From: Tridacna crocea
Lineage: Eukaryota > Mollusca > Bivalvia > Cardiida > Cardiidae
Direction: 5' to 3'
DNA: 64,000 bases
Assembly: GCA_943736015.1 (NCBI GenBank)
Contig: OX031058.1
Coordinates: forward strand, 3,549,001 to 3,613,000
Part shown: one piece after another, positions 16,204 through 57,895 of the stretch
Numbering within the stretch: position 1 is the first letter of the stretch
How the letters are laid out: every line of letters begins with the position of its first letter
Made by a program: the position numbers and the translations under genes
The notes under the pieces: generated by a model
What the model saw: the letters and a program-made list of their open reading frames with translations, nothing else
What the model was told of the DNA's origin: nothing
The model's database searches: none

Positions 16204-16417
16204 TTAACCTTTGTGCTGCTAGGCGCGACTCACTGACTTTTTGCAGACGCTGTAGATCAAGATCAGACTGCACAGAACGTTCAGTCTGATCTTGGATCTA
16301 CAGTGTCTGATGATGAAATATTTTTCACAATAAAAAGAGAGAAAAGAGTTTGAATTACTATTAATTCATTGGCTTGAAATTTGAATTTACCTTATTTAGC
16401 AGAATAGAAAGGATTAA
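16204..16417. mobile_element. Family pB-C MITE, full length
   Basis: It begins TTAACCTTTGTGCTGCTAGG and ends AGAATAGAAAGGATTAA. The hairpin pairs CTGTAGATCAAGATCAGACT with AGTCTGATCTTGGATCTACA around loop AGAAC. Confidence 0.75.
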
Positions 16418-16804
16418 TCTTAATCGAGAAATAAGAGCTAGGTTTGTTGAAGATAAAATCGTTTTTACTTGCAGAACCTCCTGTCTTTGGTAAAAGTTCA
16501 AAGGCTATATAGCGGCCAAATGTGAGCAGTTCAGTATATAAATTTCATTCATATTTAATGTTATTTTTCTGTCGGCGATTGGGTGGAATGTTTTACCAAC
16601 CATGTTTAACAGATCACCAGTCATATGACACAAGGCATACTTTTCGAAATTTATAAGCTGAAGCACAGGCGATTGTTCCCATGTATTTTGTGTTCTGATC
16701 TGGCATGTCTGCAAATAGTTTGAGTGGCAATGGGTAACTGATTGTATGGGGTATAATGCTGCTGTTATCAATAGTTAAGTCATTGCGACGACATTATTTT
16801 TTAC

Positions 16805-17031
16805 TTATCTCTTTACCAAACGACAGAATATTGGACTGGTCCGAATTGAAAGCATTTGCAGACAACAAAATAAAAATGTCTCTAAAATTGAAACTTTACT
16901 TTGGAAGAGTAGAAAACATTGTGGGAAAAGGAGAAAATGCTGGTTACCAGCATTTTCTCCTTTTCCCAGTGTTTTCAGAAGGCTCCATTCCCTGGGTCGT
17001 CAAAACCACGGATTGTTTGGTTCAGGGTTAA
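16805..17031 (+). mobile_element. Family pB-A MITE, full length
   Basis: It begins TTATCTCTTTACCAAACGAC and ends GGTTCAGGGTTAA. The core GCTGGTTACCAGC is perfect for about 20 bp on each side, then loses ACAA in the right arm. Confidence 0.8.
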
Positions 17032-17039
17032 TTTCTTCC

Positions 17040-17185
17040 GCAGAGTTTCAGCCGTACTTGTACCTTCGGGTTTGAGCGCTACAGTGCCTTGCCCAGGGAT
17101 ACTACTACACGATACCACCAACCAGTTAGACTCGAACCGGCACTCCTGGATTAAAAACACAAAAATCACACCACTGCACGGATAG
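17040..17185 (-). mobile_element. tRNA-derived SINE-like element, single copy
   Basis: The reverse strand reads CCGTGCAGTGGTGTGA, then GGTTCGAGTCTAACTGG (a B box), then CCCTGGGCAAGGCACTGTAG. The head does not fold into a good tRNA, so this is not a tRNA gene. Confidence 0.5.
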
Positions 17186-17289
17186 TAGGGCTTAACTGTA
17201 ACGTTAGTTCACCAATCGCTATAGGAAACCATTATCACCAATTTTCCCCATGTTTTGTCTGGTCCCGCGAGGTGAAAAGGGCATCGATT

Positions 17290-17420
17290 TAAACCCATTA
17301 CCACACAATCCATACTTTTGACGACCCTGAGAAAGAAGCCTTTAGTAAACATTGTGGGAAAAGGAGAAAATGCTGGTAACTAGCATTTTCTCCTTTTCCC
17401 ACAATGTTTACTAGCCGAAT
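17290..17420 (-). mobile_element. Family pB-A MITE, right half missing
   Basis: CCCATTACCACACAATCC to ACAATGTTTACTAGC, with core GCTGGTAACTAGC. The sequence beyond the second arm is unrelated. Confidence 0.65.
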
Positions 17421-17509
17421 AATAATATAGATCTAATTCATTTCGATTGACGTTGTTTTACATGAATCTTTCGAAAATCACCAATAATAAATTTTATTTC
17501 ATGGAGGTT

Positions 17510-17645
17510 AGTTATTACCTTTACCACACAATTTGGAATTTTGAAGAAATCAATGTGGGAAAAGGAGTAAATGCTGGTATCAGCCTTTTCCCATAGTGTT
17601 TTCTACCCTTACAAAGAAAATTCATTATTTGTGTATATATAAAAT
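17510..17645 (-). mobile_element. Family pB-A fragment with shortened core
   Basis: TTACCTTTACCACACAATTT then GGGAAAAGGAGTAAATGCTG and a truncated second arm AGCCTTTTCCC. Confidence 0.5.
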
Positions 17646-17658
17646 GTTGTTTCCATAT

Positions 17659-17909
17659 GGCATGCAACACGCAATAAAGGGGCATTCGGACATTTGCGTA
17701 AAGTGTCGTCTCGGATCAGTCTGCGCAATCCACGCAAGCTAATCCGAGACGACACTTTAGATTTTGTCCTGCAGTAGACTTGCGCAAAACAGAAAATTAC
17801 GTATAAACGGAAAGTGTCGTTTCGGATTAGCCTGCGCGGACAGCGCAGGCTAATCCGAGCCGACACTTTACGCAACTGTCAGAATGTCCCTTTTCACGTA
17901 TTGTAGGCC
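17659..17909 (+). mobile_element. Family E MITE, full length
   Basis: Ends GGCATGCAACACGC and GTATTGTAGGCC. There are two separate hairpins, each of the TAGCCTGCGC / GCGCAGGCTA type, joined by GACTTGCGCAAAACAGAAAA. It adjoins pB-A sequence on the left. Confidence 0.8.
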
Positions 17910-18245
17910 TTATGCTTTCAAATTTGCCCAGCCAAAAGTTTAATGTCTGGTAAAGAGCCACCCCAAAAGTACAACCATGGGTCACGTAAGTCGGTTGTTT
18001 ACTCTCGTAAAAGTACGATGTTAGGATGGCATAAGTAGCTGAGGTCAGCTTGTGATAGAGGGTTGTGTAACATTTTGTTTGACCATCGTAAAGTACGAAC
18101 TCTTAAATATTATACCTCTTACAAAAGACTTGACAACCTTTGAAAACATTTAGGCAAAAGGAAAAGATAAAAAGATTAGTTTTAAACAACGATATCATTC
18201 GTCAAAAGAACGATATCTTCACAGATAACTTCAATTATTTATCTG
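17910..18245. other. No supported feature
   Basis: No family is assigned. Possible pB-A remnants lie at 18120-18180 (TTTGAAAACATTTAGGCAAA). Confidence 0.3.
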
Positions 18246-18470
18246 CAACAATCGAAAAGGGGCATTCGGACATTTGCGTAAAGGGTCGTTTCGGATCAGC
18301 CTGCGCGGGCTAATCCGAAACGACACTTTCCGTTTTAATGTAACTTTCTTTTTTGCGCAAGTCTACTGTTGCACAAAATCTAAAGTAGTCGTAAAGTGCC
18401 ATCTCGGATCAGCCTGTGCGGACACTTTACTCAAATATCCGAATGCCGCCTTTCCCGTGTTGCAGGCCAT
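18246..18470 (-). mobile_element. Family E MITE with reduced hairpins
   Basis: Both ends are recognisable (CGAAAAGGGGCATTCGGACA and CGTGTTGCAGGCC). Each hairpin has lost part of an arm. Confidence 0.7.
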
Positions 18471-18489
18471 TTCATGATGTTGCAGCTTC

Positions 18490-19060
18490 TGAGGGCAGTT
18501 TGTCAGGTGGCATGGGACTTTGAAATTTGTTTACGACAGTAGGAATCATGTCGCCACGTCAGGTGGCAGGGGACTTGGAAACCACGTCGCCATGCCACGT
18601 GCCAGAGTACTTGTGAACTTGTTCACGACAGTTGCGAATCATGTCGCAACATCGGGGTTGCAGGGGAATCGGAAACTTTGTTCACGAAAGTTGCGAATCA
18701 TTTAGCCAAGTTACATGACAGGGGACTTGGAAACTTGTTCACGACATTTGTGAATCATGTCGCTACGTAAAGTGGCAAGGGACTTGGAAACTGTTCACGA
18801 CAGAGGCGAATCATGTCACTACGTCAGCTGGCAGGGAGCTTGAAAACTTTTTCACGTCTGTGGCGAATTATGTGGCCACGTCAGGTGGCAAGGACTTGGA
18901 AACTTGTTCACGGCTGTGGCGAATTATGTGGCCACGTCAGGTGGCAAGGACTTGGAAACCTGTTCACGGCTGTGACGAATTAAGTCGCAACCCTTGCCGC
19001 GGCATGATTCGCCACAGCCGAGAACAAATTTCCAAGTCTCTTGCTACCTGACCGTACCAC
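18490..19060 (+). repeat. Minisatellite derived from a foldback arm
   Basis: Units of about 60-75 bp run GTCAGGTGGCAGGGGACTTG, then GAAACTTGTTCACGAC, then GCGAATCATGTCGCCAC. The last unit (19005-19060) is inverted. The unit equals the arms of the hairpins at 19855 and 23133. Confidence 0.75.
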
Positions 19061-19194
19061 TAACATTATTATACTTCAAAGAAATTTCTCGTGATCTGAT
19101 TGGTTAACATGCCAGGAACATTATTAGTTGTACGGTCAGGTGGCAGGGGACTTGGAAACTTGTTCACGGCTGTGGTTAATCATGTCGCCCCGAT
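19061..19194. repeat. Foldback fragment plus one more arm unit
   Basis: TTATTATACTTCAAAGAAAT (19065-) matches the end of the 19195 foldback. 19131-19190 is one further GTACGGTCAGGTGGCAGGGG unit. Confidence 0.55.
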
Positions 19195-19848
19195 TTATTA
19201 TACTGCAAAGTTTTACCCTTTCAAAGCGCGTTAACCGAAATTTTCCTGTTTTATAATTTTACAATAGAGTATGCTGACGAAATAGAAATTCCCTTCTGTG
19301 TGCCCCAATGTAATGAAACTGACGTCACTTGAAATTGACGTCACTAAAACGTGCAGTTTGGTGTATAAATGTGCAGTCTGGTGATCGATCGACGCCGCCA
19401 TTTTGTATGATGTATTGCACGTGTAGTGATGTTTACGGGGCACTCAAAAGGGAAACTGGTTTTACGTGGTTTTTGCCAGGGAACATGATATTATGTTCCC
19501 GGCATGTTAACCAATCAGATCACGAGAAATTTCTTTGCAGTATAATAAAAGATCATGTACCCTGGCAAAAACAACGTAAAGCCACTTCCCTTTTGAATGC
19601 CCGTAAACAACACTACCCGTGCAACACAACATCCAGAATGGCGGCGTCGATCGATCACCAGACTGCACGTTTATGCACCAAGCTGCACGTTTTAGTGACG
19701 TCAGTTTCCAGTGACGTCAGTTTTCATTGAATTGGGGCACTCAGAAGGGAATTTCTATTTCGTCAGCGTACTCGATTCGTGAGATTATAAAACGGGAAAA
19801 ATTTTGCTTAAGGCGCTTTGAGAGGGTAAAACTTTGCAGTATGATAAA
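19195..19848. mobile_element. Large foldback, arms about 295 bp
   Basis: The left arm starts TTATTATACTGCAAAG; the right arm ends CTTTGCAGTATGATAAA. The halves are inverted copies separated by about 64 bp that itself ends CTTTGCAGTATAATAA. Each half carries GACGTCA sites and a GCCGCCATTTTG-like block. Confidence 0.8.
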
Positions 19849-19854
19849 TTCGTT

Positions 19855-19968
19855 GTACGGTCAGGTGGCAGGGGACTTGGAAACTTGTTCACGGCTGTGT
19901 TCGGCTCGGGGCGACATGATTCACCACAGCCTTGAACAAGTTTCCAAGTCCCTGCCACCTGACCGTAC
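19855..19968. repeat. Hairpin of two GTACGGTCAGGTGG arms
   Basis: GTACGGTCAGGTGGCAGGGG pairs with CCCTGCCACCTGACCGTAC, with GCGACATGATTCACCACAGC near the turn. Confidence 0.8.
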
Positions 19969-20194
19969 AAATCATCATGTAACAGCTCGAAGTAACTTCG
20001 TCCACGATTACACTGAATGTCCTTAGCATAACTCTAGCAAATCGATGGTTCTTGGCAGCCCCCTGTGCAAAAAGATATAAGACCAAAAACTTTTACTTTA
20101 CAGGCTGAACTTATTTAGCAAAGAAACGAGTAAAAGGGATGCTTTTTATCAGCATTTGCTCTTTTTCTTACAATGTTTTCATAAAGCTTCTATA

Positions 20195-20277
20195 TATCGT
20201 CGGTTTACTTCAAAAACCTCGAAACTACAGCTTGAAACAAGCTGTAGTTACGAGGTTTTTGAAGTAAACCGACGATA
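20195..20277. mobile_element. Family F foldback, copy 2
   Basis: TATCGTCGGTTTACTTCAAA pairs with TTTGAAGTAAACCGACGATA almost perfectly. It lies right of a pB-A remnant (about 20115-20190). Confidence 0.8.
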
Positions 20278-20324
20278 CATTTTTATGTCGTTCAGCAACT
20301 GGATGGTGCAATAAAGGAATAACC

Positions 20325-20540
20325 CTTAGCTTGTTACGCGCGATTTAAAGGCCTTATGTGGATAGTGTAGATTCAGATCAGGCTGCAGAGAACGTGAAGT
20401 ATGATAGTGAATCTACACTGTCCGATAAAGAAACATTTTTTCTCCACAAGAATATATTTAAAATCGGAATATTTTTTTTTTCTTTTTTTGTTTTCACTAT
20501 CGACTTGAAAGTTTATTATAGTTATTAAGCGGATTAAGGG
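20325..20540. mobile_element. Family pB-C MITE, near full length
   Basis: AACCCTTAGCTTGTTACGCG begins it and GCGGATTAAGGG ends it. The hairpin is decayed in the middle but its outer GATAGTGTAGATTCA pairing persists. Confidence 0.6.
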
Positions 20541-20619
20541 CTAAGTATTCAGATCTTTAATGCTTTCAACAGCGAAAAAGGTTTAAATCTTGGACTGTAT
20601 AGGAAACAGGTTAACTATA

Positions 20620-21030
20620 CGAGCCATGTTTTTGCTATCTTTAAATTTTCTGCATGTCAAAAGACCGGTTTACCTCACAATTCAGCCGAATGTTTGACAA
20701 AATGGATTTTGTAGATGTATAAGTTTGTAATACATTACTTTGTTCCACGCATCACTGAGATGCATTAACTCTTAACCAGACGACAAAATTTAGCCCTGTC
20801 CAAATTGAACGTATTTGCAGACCACAATTTCAGTGTTGCTCAAATGATACAATAGTTTATTGATAGGGTAGAAAACATTGTGGGAAAAGGAGAAAATGCT
20901 GGTTACCAGCATTTTCTCCTTTTCCCACAATGTTTTCAAAAGGCTTCTATCTCAGGGTCGTCAAAAGTCATTAATGTGTGTGGTAAAGGGTTTTTAAACC
21001 CCTTTTTTGCCAGAGAGACACTCATGTGTT
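20620..21030 (+). mobile_element. Family D MITE interrupted by pB-A
   Basis: Internal D sequence (TGCATGTCAAAAGACCGGTT) leads to GAGATGCATTAA, where pB-A is inserted. D then resumes with ACCCCTTTTTTGCCAGAGAG. The left half and hairpin are missing. Confidence 0.7.
20765..20997 (+). mobile_element. Family pB-A MITE nested in D
   Basis: TTAACTCTTAACCAGACGAC to GGTAAAGGGTTTTTAAA. The core palindrome is perfect: AACATTGTGGGAAAAGGAG pairs with CTCCTTTTCCCACAATGTT. Confidence 0.85.
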
Positions 21031-21164
21031 TTATACTGCACAGTTCGATTACCTAACCTAGTTGCGAGACAAGCCAAGAGATCGGTGAACAATAAAGCGG
21101 AAACAGCTTGCAAAATGCGGTCTTTCAGTAACTCGAAACTGTACTTGTTACAATATTTATAATA

Positions 21165-21748
21165 TGAGACATGCTCTGGCAAAAGGGGGCTTAATGGTTC
21201 TCCGTTACCCAGGATACCACGCTAGTTTTCTCATAAATATGGATCCATAAAATCAAGTTTGTTTAACAACAAATTTAATGATCGATTGTATGGTGTTTAA
21301 CGCCGTTTTCAACATTATTTCAGTTATATCGTGGCGGCCAGTGCACCTATCCATGCGTTCCTGGAGTTTCTTTCACCAATACTTCGCACAATTTTCTTTA
21401 CAAGCATCAGGCTACTTTCCCACATGATCATCGTGGAAGTAATGGTCAGCGGTGGGAGAGGAATGAATCCTGTCGCAGTGACTATCATCAATCCTCGGAA
21501 AGAAATTGGCTGAGCCAGGGGTCGTAGCCAGAGTTTGAACCCTTGACCCCGTGTTCTCAAGTCATGCACGCTACCGACTAAGCTACCAGGTCTCGGCAAC
21601 TTAATCATGAGGTAGACTAATCCCTTGACATGCAGAAATTTAAAGATAGCAAAAAGTTTCGACCCATGTCAGCCTGCGCAGTCCGCGCAGTCTGACATGG
21701 GTCGATACTTTTTACAAATGCATTAAGCCCCCTTTTCACAGAGCATGA
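21165..21748 (+). mobile_element. Family D MITE interrupted by a SINE
   Basis: The left end GAGACATGCTCTGGCAAAAG and right end GCCCCCTTTTCACAGAGCAT frame the element. Its hairpin is at 21658-21706. SINE S1 (21292-21598) is inserted in the left half. Confidence 0.8.
21292..21598 (-). mobile_element. SINE family S1, full length
   Basis: The reverse strand has a tRNA-like head with A box TAGCTTAGTCGG and B box GGTTCAAACTC, a body with CAGGATTCATTCCTC, and a tail GGCGTTAAACACCATACAAT. Flanks TTAATGAT and TTAATCAT suggest an 8-bp target duplication. Confidence 0.8.
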
Positions 21749-21965
21749 CTGATATGTAAGTTGTTTTAAGCTATTACTTTACAATGCTTGCGATCGAAAG
21801 CTTTTCGAAAGATTGTCGTAAAAAGAGCGATCGCTTGTAAGTAGCGATTTACTCAATTTCCCACAATGTATCCCAAACTGTAACAAAATAGTATTTTCGC
21901 CTCCCCCAATCCGCCATGTTTGCTCGTTGTGTACTTCTGTACTATATATAAAAGCTGAAATTTTG

Positions 21966-22052
21966 TTAGGCGTTTTACATCGTTTTCAACATTATTAAAG
22001 TTACATTTCGGCGGTCAAAGCATCTATCAATGCATTTACAGGTTTACCTTAT
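21966..22052 (-). mobile_element. SINE S1 tail fragment
   Basis: CGTTTTCAACATTATTAAAG and TCGGCGGTCAAAGCATCTAT match the 3' part of the 21292 SINE. An apparent signal-peptide frame that starts at 22030 begins in this fragment. Confidence 0.6.
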
Positions 22053-22487: not shown

Positions 22488-22550
22488 TTGTGGATCCAAG
22501 ATCAGATTAAACGTTCCGTACCGTCTGATCTTGATCTACACTGTGCACAA
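22488..22550. mobile_element. Family pB-C hairpin fragment
   Basis: GTGGATCCAAGATCAGATTA faces CGTCTGATCTTGATCTACAC. Confidence 0.5.
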
Positions 22551-22779
22551 AAGTACCATTTATGATTAGTCTCAATAATGAGGTGATTTCTTTCATATTT
22601 GGACATATTTACTGTGCACCGTTCAATCGAAAAGTAACATCGCCTTTGGGGACAGTTATTTGTGTACATTTATGATTATCAGGATTCCAAGGACAAACCT
22701 ACTGTTTCACTCGGCATGTTTAATTTTAAGTTTACAGATTGAAAAGAAAAGAAAGATATGACCTAAGCTTTTTCAAAAA

Positions 22780-23000
22780 GTAGCTAAATGCATCTGCCAA
22801 AAGTATCGACCCATGCCAGCCTGCGCAGTCCGCGCAGGCTGACATGAGTCGAAACTTTTTGCTGGTGGTCTTTTTCTGCATGTCAGAGGACCAGTCTAAC
22901 TCATGCATCAGTCAACTGTTATTGAAAATGAATTTTTTGGATTCATAAATTTTATGTGATTACCTGCTTATAATTGATCACGGGGATACATTAGAAAGGC
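22780..23000 (+). mobile_element. Family D MITE, ends decayed
   Basis: The hairpin GACCCATGCCAGCCTGCGC faces GCGCAGGCTGACATGAGTC. D internal sequence (TGCATGTCAGAGGACCAGTC) follows. Confidence 0.7.
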
Positions 23001-23132
23001 TGAGGAAAGCAATATGCCAAGGAGACAAAAATGCTCGGGAAAGAAGCCTTTCTCCATTTGCAGCAATTATTTTGAAATACACATATGTAGAGTATGAAAT
23101 TATGTCATGCCTGGCTAAAGGGACTTTATTAG

Positions 23133-24462: not shown

Positions 24463-24525
24463 ATAGGTATTATAGATCCATTGTTTTGTATTAGCTTGTT
24501 TGGTATGATGGAGTGCGGGGATGCG

Positions 24526-25043: not shown

Positions 25044-27398
25044 CACGGGTAGGAAACTTCATATTCAGAGCCAATGGCTCCGACGAGAAAATGTTGTGTT
25101 GGTCTTCCGTTTCTGAAGATGTCGGCCCAAAAACAATCCAAAAACAGGTAAGCTCGTCATTATTTGTAATTATGTGTTCTTATGTCTTTGAAATTCAAAA
25201 AAAGGAGAATGGCATTCGATTCTCTGGTCTTTCAACGTCTTTTCTGCACTGCAGAAAGTTTGAACAGCTGTACGATGTTGTCTGAATCATTTGTGGCGTG
25301 GGTTGACTGTAGCCAAAATAATACGTCTCGGAGATAAATGCAGGCTCTTTCTGCCCTTTAAATAAGCAAACTAAAGAAATTTTCCTGTTCTACAGGCTTA
25401 GATAATTGTCTTTGACGTTTCCATTCGCTCAATCAAAGAATCTACAGAAAACTGTCCAAAACGGGCGTAATTTAAGAAAGGCTCCGACTGTGTGGGTCGG
25501 TTACGAAAATATCGGTTGGCTCCGATGGAAGAGGAATTACGTTTTTTTTTCTCTCTCTCTAATTTTCGGGTATATAAATAGGTGCGTCGAGTTAAATGTG
25601 AAGCAACAGTTCATTTTAAGCCTATTTTCTCGTTTTGTTTATATATATAAATAGCAAAGAGAAGTATTTTACCAATTTTACATATTGTCAAATTGGCATT
25701 TTGCTAATATGAATGTACAATCAGAAAACGTAAAAGATGCCATTCATTCCATTGTTTAGCAACGTGCTCAAGGGGAGCTTTAAGATCAGATGTGTCCGTC
25801 GTGCGTCGTCTGTCATTCGTCGTCCGTCGTGCGTCGTCCATCGTCAGCTATTTCTTTAAACATCTTCACCTCCTTTACCACAGGGCCAATTTGGACCAAA
25901 CTTGGCTGGAATGCTCCTTGGGAGGTCCTCTTTAAAAAGTGTTCACAGAATTTTATTCTATCTAAAACCCAGGTTGCCATGGCAACCAAATGGAATTTTT
26001 AAGGAATTCTTTAAAAATCTTCTGCTTTGAAATCGTTCGTCAAATTCTGAAATAATTTCACAGAGATGTTCCTAAGGTGATCATTTTCGAAATTTGTTGG
26101 CAAAATCTTTATCCCTCAGGAAACATGGCTCTGGTGAATGGGGGCTACTTGACTGAATGAAGGAATTCTCAAACATTATTCTTCTCTGAATGTTCCTCGG
26201 ATAACCATTTTTAAAACTTATTAGCAAAATTTTGATCCGTCAATGGCTCTGGTGAATGGGGGGTACTCGCACTAAACGGAAATAAAAAGATTCTTAAAAA
26301 TTCTTCTTCTCTGAAACAGCTGGTCAGATTTTGAAATAATTTCACAGAAATGTTCCTTGTGTGATAATTTTCAAAAACTTTTCGTGAAATTTTGATCCGT
26401 CAATAACCATGGTTCTAGTGAGTGGGGGGCTACTTGCACTATACGGAAATGAAGAAATTCGCAAACATTATTCTTCTCTGAAACAGCTGATCAGAGTTTA
26501 AAACGATTTCACAAATTCCTTGGAAAACCATTTTTAAAACTTGTTCGTAAAATTTTGATCCATCAATTAACATGGCTTTGGTGAATGGGGGCTACTCGCA
26601 CTATATGGAAATGAAAAAATTCTTTCAAATTCTTCTTCGCTGAAATCGCTGGTCAGATTTTAAAATAATTTCACAGAGATGTTCCTTGGATGACCCTTTT
26701 CGAAAAGTATTCGCGAAATTTTGATCCGCCAATAAACATGGCTCTGGTGAGTGGGGGGCTACTTGCACTATGATAATTATGCCCATGAAGAAATTCATAA
26801 AAAAAATCTTGTTCTGTGAAAGGTCTCGTGAGATTTTGAAATTATTTCATAGAGATGTTCCTGTGGTGACCCTTTTCAATAAGTTTTTGCGCAATTTTGA
26901 TCAGTCAGTAAACATGGCTCTGGTGAATGGGGACTTTAAATTAGAGAGAAAAAAAAAATAAACGAAATTCCTCTTCCATCGGAGCCAACCGATATTTTCG
27001 TAACCGACCCACACAGTCGGAGCCTTTCTTGAAATACGCCCGTTTTTGGATAGTTTTCTGTAGATTCTTGGATTGAGCGAATGGAAACGCCAAAGACAAT
27101 TATCTAAGCCTGTAGAACAGGAAAATTTCTTTAGTTTGCTTATTTAAAGGGCAGAAAGAGACAACATCGTACAGCTGTTCCAACTTTCCGTAGTGCAGAA
27201 AACACGTTGAAAGATCAGAGGATCGAATGACATTCTCCTTTTTTTGAATTTCAAAGACATAAGAACACATAATTACAAATATTGACATGCCTACCTGTTT
27301 TGGAATTGTTTTTCAGCCGACATCTTCAGAAACGGAAGACCAACACAACATTTTCTCGTCGGAGCCATTGGCTCTGAATATGAAGTTTCCTACCCGTG
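25044..27398. mobile_element. Element with about 440-500 bp inverted repeats and 5-bp target duplication
   Basis: The left arm (25044-25542) starts CACGGGTAGGAAACTTC; the right arm (26959-27398) is its inverted copy ending GAAGTTTCCTACCCGTG. CTTAC flanks both sides (25039-25043, 27399-27403). Each arm carries an ATG frame (from 25074: MAPTRKCCVGLPFLKM) running to a splice-donor-like CAGGTAAG or CAGGTAGG. The interior is pearl-like repeat P1. Terminal CAC plus a 5-bp duplication recalls Transib, but superfamily is not established and no transposase is seen. Confidence 0.75.
25785..26950 (+). repeat. Pearl-like element P1, tandem units of about 165 bp
   Basis: It opens with a GTCCGTCGTGCGTCGTC tract and TTTGGACCAAACTTGGCTGG, then about six units marked by AACATGGCTCTGGTGAATGG at 26125, 26243, 26409, 26572, 26738 and 26913. 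Architecture (microsatellite plus tandem core units) fits the bivalve pearl family. It lies wholly between the long inverted arms. Confidence 0.7.
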
Positions 27399-31144: not shown

Positions 31145-31373
31145 TTAACCCTTTACCTCATAAGGCATTTCTATAGTATCTCTAATTGACCCTAAATAAC
31201 AGCAAGGATGAAGCAGTTTCTTATGTGTATATGACACCTTTTGATAGCATAGAAAACATCGTGGCAAAAGGTAAAATTGCTCTTCACGAGCAATTTCACC
31301 TTTTGCCACAATGTTTTCCAAAGACTCCTACAAGCGATGCGTTGAAATGAGTATCTATGGAGTAAAGGGTTAA
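31145..31373 (+). mobile_element. Family pB-B MITE, copy 1
   Basis: TTAACCCTTTACCTCATAAG to GGAGTAAAGGGTTAA. The core is ATTGCTCTTCACGAGCAAT, with arms TGGCAAAAGGTAAA / TTCACCTTTTGCCA. Confidence 0.85.
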
Positions 31374-31908: not shown

Positions 31909-32145
31909 GATGAGCCGTGCTCTGTGAAAAGGGGGCTTATTGCATCTGCGAAAAGTATCGACCCAGGTCAGCCAACGCAGTCTGCGCAGGCAGACCTGGG
32001 CCGAAACATTTCGCTATTGGTCAATTTTCTGTATGTCAAAGGACCATTCTACCTCGTGATCAAGTTGGTTATGGAAATAAGTGGCTCCTACGGACCTATA
32101 ACTGGACCTATAACTATGTGATGACTTTGGCTAGTACCGTGTATA
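31909..32145 (+). mobile_element. Family D MITE, right end missing
   Basis: GAGCCGTGCTCTGTGAAAAG then the hairpin at 31970-32007 (GACCCAGGTCAGCC facing GGCAGACCTGGGCC), then D internal sequence. Confidence 0.75.
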
Positions 32146-33847: not shown

Positions 33848-34074
33848 TTAACTCTTTACCAAACGACAAAATTTTAGACTGGTCCAAATTGAAAGCACTT
33901 GCAGACGACAAAATAAAGGTAACTCTAAAATTGAAATTTGTATACAGCAGGTTAGAAAACATTGTGGGAAAAGGAGAAAATGCTGGTTACCAGCATTTTC
34001 TCCTTTTCCCTCAATGTTTTCAAAAGGCTTTTTTTTCTTTCAGGATCGTTAAAAGTCGGGATTGTGTGGTAAAG
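33848..34074 (+). mobile_element. Family pB-A MITE, near full length
   Basis: TTAACTCTTTACCAAACGAC to GGATTGTGTGGTAAAG, right TTAA lost. The core GCTGGTTACCAGC has one changed base in the outer right arm (CCCTCAATG). Confidence 0.85.
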
Positions 34075-34089
34075 ATCTATCATGCTGAA

Positions 34090-34275
34090 TAACTAAAATG
34101 AAAATTTTCATTTCGATAGTAAAAAAACCCAAATATTGCTATGTAAAAGTTATGGTTTTGGGGAATTACATCTTCCTATCAGACAGTGGAGATCCAAGAT
34201 CAGACTGCACGTTCTGTGCAGTCTGATCTTGATCTCCGCTGTCTGCAAAAGGTCAGTGAGTCGAGCATAGCAGTC
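34090..34275. mobile_element. Family pB-C MITE, reverse orientation
   Basis: The hairpin at 34179-34246 is nearly perfect (GCAGTCTGATCTTGATC facing GATCCAAGATCAGACTGC, loop GTTCT). GCAAAAGGTCAGTGAGTCGA follows, the family's left-end interior on the other strand. Confidence 0.7.
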
Positions 34276-34551
34276 TAAGGCTTGAAATAGAAGAATCTCT
34301 GCAAAAACAATTACCGGTGAACTGTTACAACTGCAAATTAAATTGCAGACAATGAGCGTCTTCTGAATACCGAAGACTTTTAGATAAAAACCCTTTGCGC
34401 GTTGTACACGAGTTTTGGGTCTACTTCGAGGCGAGGGTTGGCAAAGATCAGACAACACGTATATTACCAAGATGAATCTGCACGAGTATTCTGACCCTTG
34501 CATATAATATCCTCCTAAATGCCTATAAGAAGAAAAATAAACGAGCACTTG

Positions 34552-35033: not shown

Positions 35034-35248
35034 TTATATTGGAAGAAGAAAGGCAATAACATATATACGAAAGTTCACGCTCTGACGTCATTTCATCTGG
35101 GCTCGTTGTCATAAAAAATCTTGTATATTGATGAAATTTGTTGTGTGAAGAACAATTCATTTAGAACAGACCGTCGGCGCAGTCCTCCTTATTAAGTATT
35201 TATGGGATTTTTTCCCCCGCGGACTTTGCTGGGCCAATAGCCGTATAT

Positions 35249-35508
35249 TGCCAGCAATACACGAAAAGTGGCATTCGGACAATTGCGTAAAGTGTCGTTT
35301 CGGATCAGCCTGCGCTTTCCGCGCAGGCTGATCGGAGACAACACTTTCCGATTATGTGTGATTTTCAGTTTCACGCAAGTGTACTGTGTGACAAAATCTA
35401 ATGTTTAAGAAAAGTATCTTCGAGGATTAGACTGTGCGGACTGCACAGGCTGATCCGAGACGGCACTTTACGCATATTTTCGAACGACTCTTTTTGCATG
35501 TTGCAGGA
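35249..35508 (+). mobile_element. Family E MITE, full length
   Basis: Ends CCAGCAATACACGAAAAGTG and GCATGTTGCAGG; two hairpins, the first with loop TTTCC in place of AGTCC. Confidence 0.8.
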
Positions 35509-35821
35509 CAATTATATCATATAATATTTAAATGTCTGTACTTTTTTTACGCGGTAAGTACTATAGTTGTTTTCAACCGAAAGCCAATGGACAATTTATA
35601 ATCGTAATCTTTGATGTCTTTCACGAAATATTATGACAAAGAATGGCCTGCATTCACATTCATACTCAGTCTAAAATTAGTCTCAGTAATGAGACGTTTA
35701 CGGTTTACGATACGTCTTTTCATATTTAGACGTTTATTGCGCACCGTACCGTCTCAAGTCCAACGTGAGTTTTCCTGTAGAAAAGCCACAGCGCTATATA
35801 CTTATCTTCTGTTTCGTCGAT

Positions 35822-41467: not shown

Positions 41468-42958
41468 TATCCCCCGCCGTAGGCGGAGGGTTATAGTTTT
41501 AGCGTTGTCCGTCCGTCCGTCCTTCCGTCCGTCCGTCCGTCCGTGTGTCCGTCCCGGCAAATATCTCCAATACCATTGGACGGAATTTCATGAAACTTTA
41601 TACACATGTACAATGACCCATTCTCCCGAGACACTTTTTTTGTTTTTTTGATTCGATGCAAAATGGCCGACTGAGAGCGATTTTAAGTTTCACTTAAGTT
41701 ACACTTAAGTACACTTTTAATATTTGGAGTCTTCTCTTCAAAACTATACAAAGTTTTTACATGGAACTTGTCACATCTGCCAACCTCCATTAGGAAATGC
41801 AGGAAAAAAAGTTTCACGTACATTGACTGTGCAACACCACAGTTATTTGCCCTTGTTTTTGTAATAAGTTGCCATGGAAAAAGGGGGTTTCATGTTATAT
41901 TTCATTCCATTTCTTTTGAAGGGAACTCATTCCACATTTCTTAACAGAATTGAACAGAATTTTGACAGAATATTTCTTGTCATGTCACCTATTGAATATT
42001 GTCAACATTTTGCGATTTGTACCTGCGTCATGAAAAAAGGGGGCTTCATGTTTTATCTCATTTTATTTCTTGTGAATGCAACTAGTCCAATATTTCTTGA
42101 CAGAATTGAAATGAATTTCACAGAATGTTTCTCATCATTTGACCTATCGCATATTCTCAAGGTTTTACGATTTGAAGCTGCGTCATGAAAAAAGGGGACT
42201 TCATGTTTTATTTCATTTTATTTCTTGTGAATGCAACTCGTCCCATATTTCTTGACAGAATTCAATGGAATTTTCACAGATTGTTTATCATCTGAGCCAT
42301 CGCATATTCTCAACGTTTTGCAATTTGTGGCTGCGTCATGAAAAAAGGAGGCTTCATGTTTTATTTCATTCTATTTCTTGTGAAGGCAACTCCTCCCACA
42401 TTTCTTGGTAGATTTGAATGGAATTTTACATTATCATGTGACCTAACACAACACCTCCCACATTTCTTGGCAGATTTGGATGGAATTTTCACATGATCAT
42501 GTGACCTACGCCATATTGTCAAGATTTTGGGATTTGTAGCTGCATCATGGAATAAGGGGTCTTCATGTTATAATTTCATTTTTCACCTTTAATTACTGGA
42601 CATATCTCAACAGATTTGGACGAGATTTTCACAGATCATTCGACCTAGCACATGTTGTCAGGGTTTTGCAATTTATCACTGTATCATGGAAAAAGGAGAC
42701 TTTATGTCAAATTTAATTTTTTGTCAGTGTATCTCCAACTTTTATGAAATGCCAAGTTCTGCCAAAAGGATACTTAATGTATAATCCTGTTATGGACCTC
42801 TTTTATATTTTTTTATGTAATGAAATCCTGTGCCATGGAACAAGGGAGCTTAATGTATAATTTCATCATGGACCAATAACAAAAAGGCCACATGTATATG
42901 CAAAACAGAATACCTCCTATACGTTTGTATCAAAAAAGGTCTTTTTCGGCGGGGGATA
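41468..42958 (+). mobile_element. Pearl-like element P2, about 155-bp tandem units
   Basis: Short inverted ends TATCCCCCGCCG and CGGCGGGGGATA; a (GTCC)n microsatellite at about 41508-41553; then about six units marked by GTCATGAAAAAAGGGGGCTT at about 41873, 42029, 42184, 42338, 42546 and 42685. All parts of a pearl-type element are present. Confidence 0.75.
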
Positions 42959-43180: not shown

Positions 43181-43984
43181 GGTGAAACATAGCGTTATAC
43201 TGTCTTTCGAATCAATAAATAGACCGTAAGCAATGGTTATCTGCATTGATTATTGAGATTCCTCAATAACTAGTACATTACAGATTCTACTAAGTTGTCC
43301 TGTCATTGCATGTGTGCCATTGTGTCATTTCGTCATTTTCGCAGGCCCTTCACTCGGTAATACCCACAGACTTTTGTGGCCACATTGTCCATTACCTGTG
43401 CTAACTTACCTTTGCTGTCGTTGAGCTGTAAAAGAATATTCATTCATTCATTCATTCATTCATTCACATCAGGAGCCCACTTGACCTGTCTAACCCCAAA
43501 CAAACACACCCATATTTAATAAATTCAAACGTGTTTACAGGATCTGGTGTTGATATACACCGCGCAGAATCAACACGGTGTCTCAAATAGCATGTTTCAG
43601 AGTATTTAGGCTATAAGACAGATGCATGTAGTTTTTCCAGACACTTCAAAGACAACAATTGTCAAGAACGAAGATAACAGAAGGATTAATCATTTAATTA
43701 TGAATGATAATTAGCAATAAGGCACAGTTACGTTCCCTGATTTGGTAAAAATTTTCACTGAAAAAAGCAACTATAGACGAGTAATGGCGCCATCGTGTGG
43801 TTGTTTTCTTTCATATCTCTCCATACGCTCTTCTAGACAGCCCCACCTTTCAGGTAAGTCAATGTATTGTTAGATAACAATAGTACTATTGGTGCACTTT
43901 GCCTAAATTATTACTAGACCTATCTTCTTACCACCTGAGACGAATTTGTTGCAGGTTTCATAACATGATTACAAGATATAAATG
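43181..43984. repeat. TTCA microsatellite (43438-43466), otherwise unassigned
   Basis: ATTCATTCATTCATTCATTC-type run of about 7 units. The rest shows no gene or repeat I recognise. Confidence 0.6.
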
Positions 43985-44239
43985 GTCTGCAACACTCTAA
44001 AAGGGGCATTCGGACGTGTGCGTAAATTGTCGTTTCGGATCAGCTTGTGCAGTCATCACAGACTAATCCGAGACGGTATATTTTGTTCGTATGCGATTTT
44101 CTGTTTCACACCATGCAGTGTACTGTAGCACAAAATCTAGTGTAGTCGTAAAGTGCCGTCTCGGATTAGCCTGCGCGGACTGCGCAGGCTGATCCGAGAC
44201 CACACTTTACGCAATGCTCCTCTTCGAGTGTTGTAGGAC
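43985..44239 (+). mobile_element. Family E MITE, full length
   Basis: Ends GGTCTGCAACACTC and CGAGTGTTGTAGGAC. The second hairpin is perfect (GTCTCGGATTAGCCTGCGC facing GCGCAGGCTGATCCGAGAC); the first is decayed. Confidence 0.8.
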
Positions 44240-45239
44240 ATCTAGAAATCAAGCAATAAGGAATTATGAGGGCTAATTGAAAAGTTCCGTGCGTTCAATT
44301 AAAGGAGCGAAGCATGAGCGTCCTTTTTCAGCCCTACCATTCCCTGACTATTTAGGACTATGTACCGGAAGTCTGGTGTCATTTGGTCAATCTATGTCAA
44401 AGAGGTAGCACCCTTTGGTAAACAAAGCAAGTGACATTTGCGAAATGAACAAACACGCCGAAAGAGCTTGCAAGCAAGTCTGTCATTGACAAGGCTTCGA
44501 CGAATGATTGTGGCTCTGAATGAACTGAGAAACAGCCCTATCCGCCTGATCTCTCTCCACCATCTATTTCCAAAATTGGAGAAAAAAAACACCATTAACG
44601 GTACCCAGTTTCGGTTACATGATGACGTCATTTGTGGAGGACCTTCTGAAGGCCTTCTCCAAAAGCGGTATTGAGGCCCTATAAAGTCGCTTTCTGTAGT
44701 GTATAGATACTGGATAGGCTGCTGTAAAATAATTCAATGTGTCAGCCAAAAGTCAAACCCTTACAAATGAGACTCACGACTTATCGATGAACCCTTATAA
44801 GTATTATACAAAAATACACATGAAAATATTGTGTAACAATCAAGAGCAATGTCTTCTTATGTCACAATGTTTTCAAAAAAAAAAAAAGTCTGCAGCAACA
44901 AAAAAAAATGCTTGTGCAAAACATGGTAAACCAATTAAGTTCTGTTTAGATCAATGAGACAAACAAACGAAAGGTAGGCTAATAATAGAAACAAGTGAGA
45001 CGAGGGGAGTGCTATTTTTATGTACGTCGGGGAAACAGGTTAAGGTGTCAGTTACATGAAATCTGCAATCAGGTGTCTTGCAAATAACGTTTCCAGCCAC
45101 TCACTTATTGTTTACGATGTTCTGTCTGAACCCATGTTGTAATATATAGTAGACAGGGATTGTTTTACATTCATTATCGTTTTAAGTTTCCGTTGGAAAA
45201 ATGCAAAGCTTGTATACAAAAGAAGCATTAGTGAAACTC
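44240..45239. other. No supported gene
   Basis: A 78-codon frame at 44438-44674 is overlapped by a 79-codon frame on the other strand; neither shows a domain. GCTAATTGAAAAGTTCCGTG at 44272 resembles a transposon end, but I find no partner. Confidence 0.3.
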
Positions 45240-45720: not shown

Positions 45721-45835
45721 AAGGTAAATGGTCAGCGTACTCTGTAAGTACACTGTTATTCCCCGTTCCAAGAAAACTACCATTTTTGAGTGGGCTAATT
45801 GATTATCTACCTGAGTCTGTTTACAGCGAGTTTAT

Positions 45836-46044
45836 TTAACCCTTATCTTGCTGTATAAAAGAAATGAAACTTTCACGGCGATTGCACATGAAAATATTGC
45901 TGTTTGAAACTTATTTCCGGCAGAAATGTTTCTCCTAATCGGACAGTGTAGATGCAAGATCAGACTGCACGTTCTGTGCAGTCTGATCTTGCATCTACGC
46001 TGTCTGCAAAAGGTCAGCAAGTCGCTTAGCAGCGAAAGGATTAA
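45836..46044. mobile_element. Family pB-C MITE, full length
   Basis: TTAACCCTTATCTTGCTG to AGCAGCGAAAGGATTAA. The hairpin pairs GTAGATGCAAGATCAGACTG with CAGTCTGATCTTGCATCTAC; TGCA replaces the usual TCA in both arms. Confidence 0.85.
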
Positions 46045-48752: not shown

Positions 48753-48920
48753 AACATCAAATGGACCTATTCCTTTGTAAAAGAAGGGGGAAAATGTTTT
48801 AGAACATTAGGAGTATTTTACCAAGATTTCTGAAGACATTGCTGGAATTCTGTATACCTTTGAGCATCTGTTCTTTGTTGGAATTTTGATGTTGATCCCT
48901 ACTGTCTGACAAAGTATCTT

Positions 48921-49131
48921 TTAACACTTATACTCCTAAGCGCGACTAACTGACCTTTTCCGGACAGTGTAGATCAAGATCAGACTGCACAGAACGTGCA
49001 GTCTGATCTTGGATCTACACTGTCCGGAAAGGAGATATTATACCCCAAAACATAACTTTGGAATAAAAATATTTTGGTTTTTACAATGGAATTAAGAAAT
49101 AATTTTAGTAAATTAGCAGGATAAGGGTTAA
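48921..49131. mobile_element. Family pB-C MITE, full length
   Basis: TTAACACTTATACTCCTAAG to AGCAGGATAAGGGTTAA. The hairpin is nearly perfect from CCGGACAGTGTAGATCAAGA to its complement, loop AGAAC. Confidence 0.9.
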
Positions 49132-49145
49132 GGGGCATTCAGCCA

Positions 49146-49369
49146 GTTTTACCACACAATCCCTACTTTTGACGCCCCTGAGAAAGAAACCTTTAGAATA
49201 CATTGTGGGAAAAGGAGAAAATGCTGGTAACCAGCATTTTCTCCTTTTCCCACAATGTTTTCTACCCTTCACAAAACAAATTTTAAATTTTCAGTCACTT
49301 TAATTTTGTCGTCTACAAATGCTTTCGATTTGTACAAACCTAAAATTTTGTCGTTTGGTAATGAGTTAA
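49146..49369 (-). mobile_element. Family pB-A MITE, left TTAA lost
   Basis: GTTTTACCACACAATCCC to GTTTGGTAATGAGTTAA, with a perfect core (ACATTGTGGGAAAAGGAG / CTCCTTTTCCCACAATGT). Confidence 0.85.
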
Positions 49370-50645: not shown

Positions 50646-50834
50646 TTAAAATAAAACTTTCAAAACGATAGTTAGAAGCATGAATAATGTTATTTCAAAC
50701 TTACGTAATGGAGAAAAATATCTCCTTATTGGACAGTGTAGATCAAGATCAGACTGCACGTTCTGTGCAGTCTGATCTTGATCTACACTGTCCGCAAAAG
50801 GTCAGTGAGTCGCGCAGAGCAGCTTAAGAGTTAA
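50646..50834. mobile_element. Family pB-C MITE, reverse orientation
   Basis: TTAAAATAAAACTTTCAAAA to CAGCTTAAGAGTTAA, with a perfect hairpin GACAGTGTAGATCAAGATCA / TGATCTTGATCTACACTGTC. Confidence 0.85.
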
Positions 50835-53785: not shown

Positions 53786-53789
53786 TGCT

Positions 53790-55080
53790 GTTTTAGTTCA
53801 CCTTACCACGAAAAGCTCACGATCAGCTTTTGTGATCGTGCTGTGTCCTTCGTACGTCGTCAGCTTTTACATTGCATACGCCCCTAGAGGTCACATTTTC
53901 CGTCCGATACACAGGAATTTTGGTCAGATTGTCTGTTTTCATTCGAACACGCACAAGTTCTAAAATGAGTCATGTCGGATTAAAAACAAGATCATTAGGT
54001 TAAAATTTACAAAACCTCGCATATACTCTTCAGGCTACCTTTCCTTTAAACATGGTCAGAGTATTTGTCGTGATAAAATCTTGGATAAATTTGAAAATGG
54101 GTCAAGTCAAGTCGGGTCAGAAACTAGGTCAATAATTCAAATCTTTGAAAAGCCTTTTGCACGCTCTAGAGGCCATATATTAAGTACAATAATTATGAAA
54201 CTAGGTCAGAATCTTTGTGTTGATGATATATCATACGTGTTCGGGAATGGGTCACGTCAGGTGAAAAAACAAGGTCACTAGATCAAGCTTTAGAAGAAAA
54301 AAAACTTTTGTCAACACTGGATATCACATTTTTGTCATAATACTCTTGAAAGTTGGTAAGAGTATTTGTTCTGCTTCTGATTATATCTCGGACGAGTTCG
54401 AAAAAAGGGTCATGTTGGGTCAAAAATTAGGTCAATGGGTCAAATCTTTGAAAACATTATGTGCATCCAAGAGGTCACATTTTTTTGTACAACACTCTTG
54501 AAAATTGGTCATGAATTTTGTCTTGACGGTATATTGAATGAAAATGGGTTATGTGGGGTGAATACGTAGGTCACTTGGTCAAATCTTAGATAAACCTTAT
54601 GCACACTTTAGTTGCCATATATTCATTACAATACCTTTGAAATTTGGTCAGGATGGTTTCGTGTTGATATCTTGGAATAGTGTGAAGATTCGTCAAATCG
54701 GGTAAAAAACTAGGTTACTAATTCAAATCTTTGATGCGCCTTGTGTACGTTCTAGTGGCCACATTTTCAAACCGAAAATCTTGGAACTTGGTGAGAATAT
54801 TTTCTTGATCATAGACTAATAGAAAATAAGTCCTGTTGGATCAAAAACTAGGTCTCTAAGTCTCTGAATAACCTTCTGTACACACTACAGGCCACATATC
54901 TCTCAAATGCTCATGCAAGATGGCCAGATTCTTTGTCTGGATGATTTCTACAATTCTGAAAATAGGCAATATTGGGCTTAAAGTAGGTTACTGAGACTAA
55001 TTCTAGAAAAAGCTTGCATACACTCTAGATGCCTCATTTAAAGTCCAATTACTATGAAAATGACAATACTTTGAAATGGA
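53790..55080 (+). repeat. Pearl-like element P3, about 145-bp tandem units
   Basis: Units carry AACTAGGTCACTAGGTCAAA, CTTTGAAAAACCTTGTGCAC and CTCTAGAGGCCACAT-type blocks, marked by AGGTC at 54126, 54272, 54429, 54568, 54712 and about 54850. A GTACGTCGTCAGC tract precedes them. No clear terminal repeats are seen. Confidence 0.65.
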
Positions 55081-56561
55081 AAATGATTCAATGCATTATG
55101 AATGTGTGATTTTTATCACTTTATGATATCTTGCAACTGTATGGTTCCTTAGCGATTCTTTGGCCTACTTTTACAAATTTGTACTTATGTCAAGAATATT
55201 CAATAAGCACTGTATGAGAAGACAATTTTACTTTATTAGCTGATAGCCAAGGTAAAGATCAGATGCACAGAACGTGAATTCTGGGCCAACTCCACCCACT
55301 TGTGTAGTCATAGAATACATACCACGAGTCCCCGCACTGCGGTTATGATATTTGGCCCCCATTCTATCATGTACATACCAAACAAATCTAGCAAGACTAT
55401 GTAATGGTTATTTTATGAACACAGACATATCTCTAATAATGAGTTCCATATGGAATAAAACGACGAACCGAGTTCGTGAGGATGTTCGGTTTAAGTCTCG
55501 TGCAGCATATATCTACTTCATCTTACACACTTTGCAGGCGATATTTCTACAACCCATTGTATTCTTTGGCCCCCATAAATAGATCAACTGCACATTGGTT
55601 GTAATATAGCTATGTCAAATGAGAAAAATACAATATATCCTCTACAATGATATATCAAAGTCAACTAGATCAATACAATATTGTCGAGATAGAAATCGTG
55701 AATGTTCAGTTACATAACGTATTAAATAAGATGGACAGGTGCGTCACCAACCCTTTCTGAGCCATGGGCCAAATTAGGAGCTTTTGGACGGCTTAGATTC
55801 AAGATCAGACTGCACGGACGGTGCAGTCTGATCTTGAAGCTATACCGGCCATAGTTCATTCAATCCATTAAGATATAAATCTCTCAAGTTTTAGTGGATA
55901 AGAGTGTACACTGTGCTGTCAAGTCAGTTCGATGCAATGTATTTGACGCTAAAGGAGCGTCAGGGTGCCAGGTCACTCTCTTGCACTCCGGATCATTACA
56001 TTTACCTCTGTAGTGGGCTCAGAAAGTAGCCCGTCATTACGTCATATTTTTGTCACATGACCATAACTCAAAATGGCTACACAAACGCCGGTAAAAGAAA
56101 GACCAATATCGATTGTTTCGTGTGCTGTTCAAACAGCATGGGACCAATCAGACTTAGTGATGGGAAACGAACAAAAGAGGGATTCTCTGAAAAGCCTAAG
56201 TATCTTTAAAGGACGATAACTTGATTTTTAATCGTACAAACTTAGATCCAGCGGTGTGTCAAATCAGCTGTCATCATTCATGGGCGCAGCCATTTTTGTT
56301 AAAATCGGCGTAAGATTCTGAAAAGTGAAGAGGCTCGAGAAAATTAGTTCTATTTTATACAGGTAAATTCATCAGTTTGAACGCACCTATAATGTATCCA
56401 GAATCATATGTCCTTTGTCTAACTTACAATTTTACATACGAAACAGCTAAACAGTAACAAAACATCTTTTCCTCGGTTTGACAAGATTCTTGTCATTTAG
56501 CCCATCGCAGAGATGTATGTGAGGTAACGAACGACAACTCTGCTCGGAGATTGGTGCCAGG
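55081..56561. mobile_element. Family pB-C hairpin (55785-55852), otherwise unassigned
   Basis: GATTCAAGATCAGACTGCAC faces GTGCAGTCTGATCTTGAAGC around loop GGACG. A weak pB-C remnant lies near 55250. No gene is recognised elsewhere. Confidence 0.5.
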
Positions 56562-57649
56562 TATTTGAGTCAAAATCAAATTTTGCCACATTTTGGATCT
56601 TCAAAATCAGAATTTTTGAACCTAGTAAATGGTCCTAATTTTTCTTTTCTCATATGATTTAAACCTTCTAATTGCTGAATCAATACAAATTGACCCTTAA
56701 TTCCCCTTAAAATCAGATAAAATATCCTGGCTAAGAAGAGTATCAATGGCAAGTTCCATGATGTAACATTTTGTACTTATGTTTTATATACGTAACTTTT
56801 TGAAAGAAAGCGAAAAAGAACCCTTTGTCTGCTAGGGACATTTTCCATCTTTTCAATGAAAAGAATTAAAATTAAAAGTTTAAACTTGAAATCCATTTAA
56901 CAGGAATGTACCCAACCGTTGCCAAAAAACAGGATTCTATTGACTTAAAATTTTCTGTTTTGTACATTTGGGGATAAATTCACTTGCTACAATGTGTTCT
57001 AAACTTGGGGCTGAATTTTAAGTTTTCTTTTGATATTTTAATATGTTAAAAAATGTCTTGCTCATCAAAATATTTCATGTTGAGTGGCATGTTACATGAA
57101 GGATTTTGTGTTACATAATTGATACATTTTGTTACGGGACAGAAAAGTAAACAATATATTCCATAGTTTTGAACTTATTTACTGTGGAAACAAATATAAG
57201 AATCTTGACAGCTACAATACAATATCAAAGGGAATATGAACAATGGATATAAGAATCACTACAGTCCCTAATTTTGAATATTTGTTCTTTAATGTAGATG
57301 TTTGTTACACGAAGGACTGGTCTTGTTACATGACAGAAAGTAAAGCAGCAAATTAGAGGCCAAATTTACAATAAACATTAAAATACCTGAAGATGGAACT
57401 ATTTCAAACTTTTACCATTTGGGACTTGACACTATATTCAAAATGGAAATTTTTATACGTTTTTGAAGTAGGAAATTGCAGTTGTTACAGCTAGGATTAA
57501 AAGTTGTTACATCAAAGAAATAAAGTTGCAATCAAAAGTGACAGCAATTATTTTTTTTTCCCTCAAAAAGCACTCACTTTTTCAAATCTACATGTGAAAT
57601 AGCTTTTTGAACACACCCAGTGTTGATTCATAAAACCTGTTTTGGGAGA

Positions 57650-57895
57650 TAAGCAAAGGGGCGTTCCTACAATTCCAGAAAGTGCTGTCTCGAATCAGCC
57701 TGCACAGTTCGTGAGAGCTAATCTGAAACAACACTTTCCGTTTTACGTAATTTTCTGTTTTGCGCACGTCTACTGTTGCGCAAAATCTAATGTAAAACAC
57801 TGTCTCGGATTAGCCTGCGCAGACTGCGCAGGCTGATCCGAGATGACAATTTTTCCAAATGTCCGAATGTCCATTTTTGCGTGTGCTATATGTTT
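57650..57895 (+). mobile_element. Family E MITE inside the 4.7-kb element
   Basis: Two hairpins, the second perfect (CTCGGATTAGCCTGCGCAG facing CTGCGCAGGCTGATCCGAG). Ends are decayed (GATAAGCAAAGGGGCGTTC; GCGTGTGCTAT). Confidence 0.75.

What the first reader, a model, noticed from the sequence alone, without database searches (positions are those of the whole stretch)
16204..57895. Three unrelated MITE families share one hairpin core with paired (compensatory) stem changes
pB-C has stem TCAGACTGCAC with loop AGAAC; D has TCAGCCTGCGC with loop AGTCC; E has TTAGCCTGCGC with loop AGTCC. All are 11-bp stems with a 5-nt AG..C loop (27 nt in all). Between pB-C and D the stem differences at positions 5/23 and 10/18 are paired; between D and E the difference at 2/26 is paired. 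The families have different terminal repeats. Either they captured one ancestral hairpin that evolved under pairing constraint, or arms are homogenised by hairpin repair. Examples: 48921-49131 (C), 22780-23000 (D), 14866-15050 and 43985-44239 (E).
Basis: seen in the sequence. Interest (0 to 1): 0.75.

Follow-up and report, generated by a model that had tools for sequence, protein, structure and literature searches.

The report
Hairpin shared by mobile DNA families
Several families of short non-coding jumping DNA in this animal-like genome carry versions of one long DNA hairpin whose two arms tend to change together, which suggests that the hairpin shape matters for their spread or is repaired by copying one arm from the other.

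Summary
The hairpins are real and their similarity is not chance, but the finding needs correction. The 27-nt core is the tip of a ~71-nt hairpin (about 33-bp stem, 5-nt loop). C, D and E arms match in register at 22/33 (C-D), 23/33 (C-E) and 25/33 (D-E) bases, 0 of 20,000 shuffles as good. The genome holds 33,277 matches to the core pattern (reversed control 0). Of three claimed paired changes, 5/23 holds (276 of 33,277 cores mixed A/C) and 10/18 mostly holds. 2/26 fails: E usually has C in the outer and T in the inner arm (5,236 mixed against 3,841 T/T cores). D and E are probably related; C has TTAA-type ends. Paired changes exceed a copy- and column-matched null about twofold (58 against 27.9 in 82 copies), but one-sided changes are seven times commoner (412). 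Unrelated hairpin family X shows the same excess (83 against 28.2), so it is not special to this core. Best reading: a conserved subterminal palindrome of MITEs, kept palindromic in spreading lineages, perhaps helped by arm-templated correction. Function is inferred, not shown.

The parts
48921..49131 (+). C element (piggyBac-like MITE), TTAA at both ends, 211 bp
   Evidence: alignment
48957..49029 (+). C hairpin, ~33-bp stem, loop AGAAC
   Evidence: DNA fold -38.7 kcal/mol, z -17.4
45835..46044 (-). C element, TTAA at both ends; hairpin 45937-46009 with G in both arms at a length-variable position
50726..50798 (-). C hairpin
34177..34249 (-). C hairpin with a paired T>G change not seen in the other window copies
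16204..16417 (+). C element, TTAA at both ends; hairpin 16240-16312
12956..13028 (+). C hairpin
22759..23020 (+). D element (right end inferred by eye from a weak match to the D terminal repeat)
   Evidence: D terminal repeat
22794..22864 (+). D hairpin
21647..21717 (-). D hairpin with loop inverted relative to its flanks (GGACT)
31946..32016 (+). D hairpin
4467..4706 (+). D element with both ends
43979..44244 (+). E element with two hairpins, one at each end
44015..44085 (+). E left hairpin
44144..44214 (-).
14894..14964 (+). E hairpin, a T/T copy at pair 2/26
17654..17914 (+). E element; hairpins 17694-17764 and 17805-17875
35244..35516 (+). E element; hairpins 35283-35353 and 35405-35475
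57674..57858 (-). E hairpin pair 57674-57744 and 57788-57858

Best explanation
C, D and E are high-copy, non-coding DNA-transposon derivatives (MITEs) that carry homologous ~71-nt palindromes just inside one end (C, D) or both ends (E). The palindrome most likely acts as a cis-element for mobilisation or amplification, either as a two-fold symmetric protein-binding site or as an extruded hairpin. Spreading lineages therefore stay nearly palindromic while the sequence drifts, and inserted copies then decay mostly by one-sided changes. Arm-templated correction (replication template switching or hairpin repair) may supply some of the paired steps. Shown: homology, anatomy, near-palindromy at family level, hairpin better conserved than flanks in C and X, about twofold excess of paired co-changes. 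Inferred: function, mobilising enzyme, and the share of selection against correction.
For: Arm similarity in register, none of 20,000 shuffles as good for each C/D/E pair. Joint covariation 0.351 against shuffled 0.185 and slid at most 0.117; 104 both-side-changed cells against 44 (26 better-kept window copies chosen by me). Within-family co-changes 58 against 27.9, simulated maximum 46 of 3,000, in 82 two-armed copies; 31 of the 58 share their paired state with another copy, which points to lineage level. Sliding the inner arm lowers co-changed cells from 38 to 17-26 (C) and from 38 to 11-19 (D). Hairpin 0.87 identical against flanks 0.68/0.62 in 7 C copies and 0.91 against 0.74/0.65 in 13 X copies. 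Among 20 C elements found by left flank the hairpin is better kept than the right flank in 19, or 17 of 18 without the two whose hairpin had been picked by the core pattern. Flank type predicts hairpin type: E 22 of 22, C 17 of 18 (includes elements in L001-L008).
Against: One-sided changes outnumber paired ones 412 to 58. E alone is not significant (7 against 4.2, P 0.10) and hardly responds to sliding (8 against 2-7). The number of pairs with a change on both sides is not above shuffles for D+E (139 of 500 reach it), nor are further pair types for C+D+E, C or D+E (56, 192, 333 of 500). In 5 D copies the hairpin is only a little better kept than flanks (0.74 against 0.65/0.69). Positions unpaired in most or many copies exist: E 10 and 28, D 22, C 17. 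No transposase was tied to any family. The nulls do not model shared ancestry.
Confidence: 0.55

Rival explanations
1. Mutational homogenisation only: template switching or hairpin repair copies one arm onto the other; the palindrome has no selected role.
For: Paired changes private to one copy in the 264-kb sample: C 16, D 7, E 4. One clear inverted loop, D 21682, and one partial, L017:1288, among 19 D loops read. Unrelated family X shows the same co-change excess. The mechanism is proposed in print (PMC8794818: abstract and Discussion read; PMC8604942: start of abstract seen in a listing).
Against: The 27 private paired changes are no more than the null total of 27.9, so copy-level correction is not demonstrated (the null was not split into private and shared). 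E and D keep fixed differences between arms. It does not predict that hairpin sequence is better conserved than flanks across copies. No inverted loop among 19 C and 16 E loops read; 38 C copies could not be oriented. Confidence lowered from 0.22 to 0.20 on checking, because of the private count.
Confidence: 0.2
2. The hairpin is an independent palindromic module captured separately by different MITE families.
For: C flanks are unlike D and E flanks while hairpins match. One D-type end is followed by a C-type hairpin (L015:425) and one by an E-like hairpin cut off by the locus end (L008:2957). Coral CMITE families with different TIRs share an internal region and transduplication is suggested there (PMC2872659, sections 10 and 15 read).
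Against: No solo mobile unit with its own target duplication was searched for. Hairpin position and loop orientation relative to the outer end agree in the three families. Flank and hairpin types are strongly tied, and one exact D-flank/E-hairpin hybrid pattern has 0 matches in the genome.
Confidence: 0.13
3. The hairpin acts as RNA: a precursor of small RNAs or a dsRNA signal.
For: Long stems; sub-threshold matches to miRNA families.
Against: None of the 39 Rfam matches reached its gathering score. If the host is a mollusc, a dedicated siRNA pathway is reported missing (PMC12479628, passages read). No expression data here.
Confidence: 0.06
4. Chance or convergence among GC-rich hairpins.
For: Three of 33 comparisons that involve control arms reach P below 0.05 (C-X 0.020, D-X 0.008, X-H4121 0.024).
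Against: C-D, C-E and D-E reach 22-25 of 33 with 0 of 20,000 shuffles as good.
Confidence: 0.03

Closest known systems
CMITEs of Acropora corals (PMC2872659, sections 10 and 15 and other passages read)
   Same: MITE families with different terminal repeats share a conserved internal region; TTAA families with CC[C/T]T ends, as in C; authors speculate that the region aids transposition
   Different: All CMITEs have TTAA ends, and the parts read do not describe the shared region as a hairpin with paired changes; here D and E have other ends
Angel MITEs of zebrafish (Izsvak et al. 1999, J Mol Evol; recalled, paper not seen; a search on words of its title found 9 papers holding them)
   Same: As recalled: palindromic MITEs whose inverted-repeat structure is kept despite high divergence, with a hairpin-based amplification model
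   Different: As recalled the whole element is the palindrome; here it is a subterminal module shared between families
Template-switch maintenance of hairpins (PMC8794818; PMC8604942)
   Same: Would explain paired changes and inverted loops
   Different: Described for RNA genes and for yeast coding sequences with inverted repeats; here MITEs, and arms of E and D keep differences
piggyBac superfamily MITEs
   Same: C: TTAA, CCCTT...AAGGG ends, 182-217 bp
   Different: No autonomous partner with C ends in the two transposase loci read of 118 matches

Membership tests
piggyBac-like MITE (C only) | TTAA target duplication | tested here: met
   3 of 7 two-ended C elements carry TTAA at both ends, the other 4 do not, which I read as erosion; 7 of 17 left ends begin exactly with TTAA
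piggyBac-like MITE (C only) | CC[C/T]T terminal motif | tested here: met
   left-end consensus TTAACCCTTA, right end TAAGGGTTAA, eroded in many copies; motif definition from PMC2872659
piggyBac-like MITE (C only) | autonomous piggyBac element with the same ends | tested here: inconclusive
   118 DDE_Tnp_1_7 matches (a lower bound), the best 22 without internal stops; only 2 loci read, neither with C ends
MITE (all three) | short, high copy, terminal inverted repeats, non-coding | tested here: met
   two-ended elements: C 182-217 bp (7), E 218-273 bp (8), D 240-271 bp (4); 58 hairpin copies in 200 kb elsewhere in the genome; too short for a transposase
D and E: transposon superfamily | target-site duplication | tested here: inconclusive
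   E ends are TATA-rich, no clear duplication; D not resolved
CMITE-like MITE group | different terminal repeats with one conserved internal region | tested here: met
CMITE-like MITE group | all families with TTAA ends | tested here: not met
   D and E ends are not TTAA
Template-switch substrate | matched multi-base patches or spacer inversion | tested here: inconclusive
   one clear and one partial inverted loop, both in D; multi-base patches not tested separately
RNA gene or miRNA | match to a curated RNA family | tested here: not met
   no match reaches its gathering score

The most novel reading that the evidence does not exclude
One palindromic module serves MITEs with different kinds of ends (TTAA-type and others) as a shared, structure-dependent amplification signal recognised by a host factor or by hairpin-dependent replication, so that sequence may drift as long as both arms drift together; unrelated family X would be a second, independent instance.
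Probability: 0.15. Interest if true: 0.75.

Novelty: new variant of a known kind. Interest (0 to 1): 0.42.

Why it matters
How MITEs reach very high copy numbers is an open question, and maintained hairpins have been suspected to help (recalled). A genome with of the order of 300,000 copies (extrapolated from 58 in 200 kb) of related hairpins, plus an unrelated hairpin family as an internal replicate, makes it possible to separate selection for a palindrome from arm-to-arm correction by sequence analysis and a simple excision assay.

Tried and rejected
Bacterial, archaeal and viral collections: patterns for the core had no matches in viral contigs or genome contigs. Rfam: only sub-threshold matches. 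tRNA-like origin: no tRNA found (bacterial settings). Covariance models as a homology test: rejected, they score unrelated hairpins highly. First null for co-changes (shuffling inner arms between copies) was replaced by one that keeps each copy's number of changes, which is less generous to the finding; on the window alone it gave C 13 against 5.6 (P 0.0015), D 6 against 3.6 (P 0.13), E 5 against 2.5 (P 0.08), X 13 against 5.7 (P 0.0018). One exact D-flank/E-hairpin hybrid pattern: 0 in the genome. Autonomous partner of C: not found in 2 of 118 loci; one of the two (L030) holds a complete D element with both ends at about 2719-2991, past the transposase match, which I take for a separate insertion. 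Literature: core strings occur in 7 papers, none of which, by title and start of abstract, is about such repeats; other searches. Rows dropped: and the pair counts leave out copies with fewer than 15 letters in an arm (one search used 82 of 106 copies). Searches also leave out L001-L008, which had been picked by the core pattern (21 of 127 copies); keep them (75, 81, 84, 86 and 100 without L003).
Full report
What is there. The window lies in a genome of 1,048,827,098 bases in 31 contigs, holds a frame with NHL repeats at its start, no tRNA (bacterial settings) and many repeats, so I take it for an animal. I suspect a heterodont bivalve from recall only; no call names the organism. A scan of the window found 43 strong short-loop hairpins of all kinds. 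Similarity searches with C, D and E seeds gave 46 places, two of which (7821, 7839) are one hairpin.

Anatomy. Majority outer arms are C TTGCGGACAGTGTAGATCAAGATCAGACTGCAC, D TAGCAAAAAGTATCGACCCAGGTCAGCCTGCGC and E TTGCGTAAAGTGTCGTCTCGGATCAGCCTGCGC. Four examples folded as DNA give -27 to -39 kcal/mol, z -9.6 to -17.4. Two-ended elements: C 182-217 bp (7 read) with TTAACCCTTA...TAAGGGTTAA ends and one hairpin; E 218-273 bp (8 read) with a hairpin inside each end; D 240-271 bp (4 read) with a hairpin at one end. Of 38 D-end matches 14 lead into a D hairpin, 22 into none, which I read as mostly the other end, 1 into an E-like and 1 into a C-type hairpin.

Is the similarity real? Loop-anchored arm identity is C-D 22/33, C-E 23/33 and D-E 25/33, each with 0 of 20,000 shuffles as good. 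Of 33 comparisons that involve control arms three reach P below 0.05, the best 0.008. Outside the hairpin D and E share GAAAAGGGG (P 0.02); C shares nothing clear with either (P 0.99, 0.11). So D and E are probably related families and C joins them only through the hairpin.

Are the changes paired? Any two palindromes can only differ in a paired way, so the claim rests on homology plus within-family data. Between window majority arms, C and D differ by 10 clean paired positions, none one-sided, 1 unclear; C and E by 9 paired and 5 one-sided; D and E by 5 paired, 3 one-sided, 3 unclear (three outermost positions of E's inner arm were not read and count as one-sided or unclear). Genome-wide, 276 of 33,277 cores are A/C mixed at 5/23, while at 2/26 strict D/E cores are T/C mixed in 5,236 places and T/T in 3,841.

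Copy-level test. In the window and 20 other 10-kb stretches (264 kb, 106 copies, 82 with both arms), paired co-changes number 58 against 27.9 under a null that keeps each copy's number of changes and each column's spectrum, with a simulated maximum of 46 in 3,000: C 22 against 11.6 (P 0.0013), D 29 against 12.0 (0 of 3,000), E 7 against 4.2 (P 0.10). One-sided changes total 412. Of the 58, 31 share their paired state with another copy (C 6, D 22, E 3) and 27 are private to one copy (C 16, D 7, E 4). The private ones alone are no more than the null total, so the excess lies largely in shared, lineage-level states, most clearly in D. Co-changed cells fall by about 30 to 70 per cent when the inner arm is slid in C and D; in E they hardly do (8 against 2-7). 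Family X, with unrelated arms, gives 83 paired against 28.2 in 192 copies, with 703 one-sided, so the effect is not special to this core. On chosen alignments the covariation score exceeds 500 of 500 shuffles and the slid controls for C+D+E, C, and D+E, but further pair types do not stand out (56, 192 and 333 of 500 shuffles reach them), nor does the number of pairs with a change on both sides in D+E (139 of 500).

Selection or correction? For constraint: the hairpin is better conserved than the rest of the same elements in C and X and slightly in D, and in 19 of 20 C elements found by their left flank (17 of 18 without two whose hairpin the core pattern had picked). For correction: private paired changes, and an inverted loop at 21682, as template switching predicts (PMC8794818, PMC8604942). 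At the length-variable position 17 of C the two arms read -/C in 15, C/C in 12, T/T in 2 and G/G in 1 of 39 copies, so matched extra bases occur but are not the rule. Against frequent correction: E and D keep fixed arm differences. I favour constraint on spreading lineages with occasional correction; the split is not settled.

Abundance and mobiliser. 58 copies in 200 kb at regular places on contigs C1-C10 extrapolate to about 300,000 hairpins. The genome has at least 118 piggyBac transposase matches, the best 22 without internal stops, so TTAA-type machinery exists; its link to C is unproven.

Known relatives. CMITEs of corals already show MITE families with different ends and a common internal region (PMC2872659). 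Bivalve genomes are reported to hold many MITEs, left unclassified in that study (PMC10294476, passages read). Maintained hairpins in MITEs are recalled from the Angel work. What is added here is a subterminal hairpin shared between TTAA-type and other MITEs with measured co-change; I found no paper on it in the searches listed under Tried and rejected, which cover only the open library.

Noticed in passing
window 49194-49264 and about 30 places in the window: Family X: a 71-nt hairpin with ~34-bp arms and 3-nt loop; in 13 aligned copies the hairpin is 91% and the flanks 65-74% identical. A subfamily at 31285 and 61787 differs from the main type by four paired changes.
   Followed up: partly
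window 48919-49350 and 33867-34287: A C element and an X element lie side by side at the same spacing in both places, as if a composite had been copied.
   Followed up: no
window 20195-20277 and 62130-62210: Two copies of another hairpin with about 40-bp arms and a 3-nt loop.
   Followed up: no
window 26189-26932 and 41873-42427: Tandem arrays with units of about 176 and 155 bp.
   Followed up: no
window 3-1235: Open frame with NHL repeats, probably an exon of a TRIM-like protein (the TRIM label is recalled).
   Followed up: partly
genome, e.g. G000:C1:4324618-4324770: Among the 100 rows ten opposed pairs of E hairpins have starts exactly 122 bp apart, suggesting many recent intact E copies.
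   Followed up: no
L030 about 2719-2991: A complete D element with both ends lies shortly after a piggyBac transposase match.
   Followed up: partly
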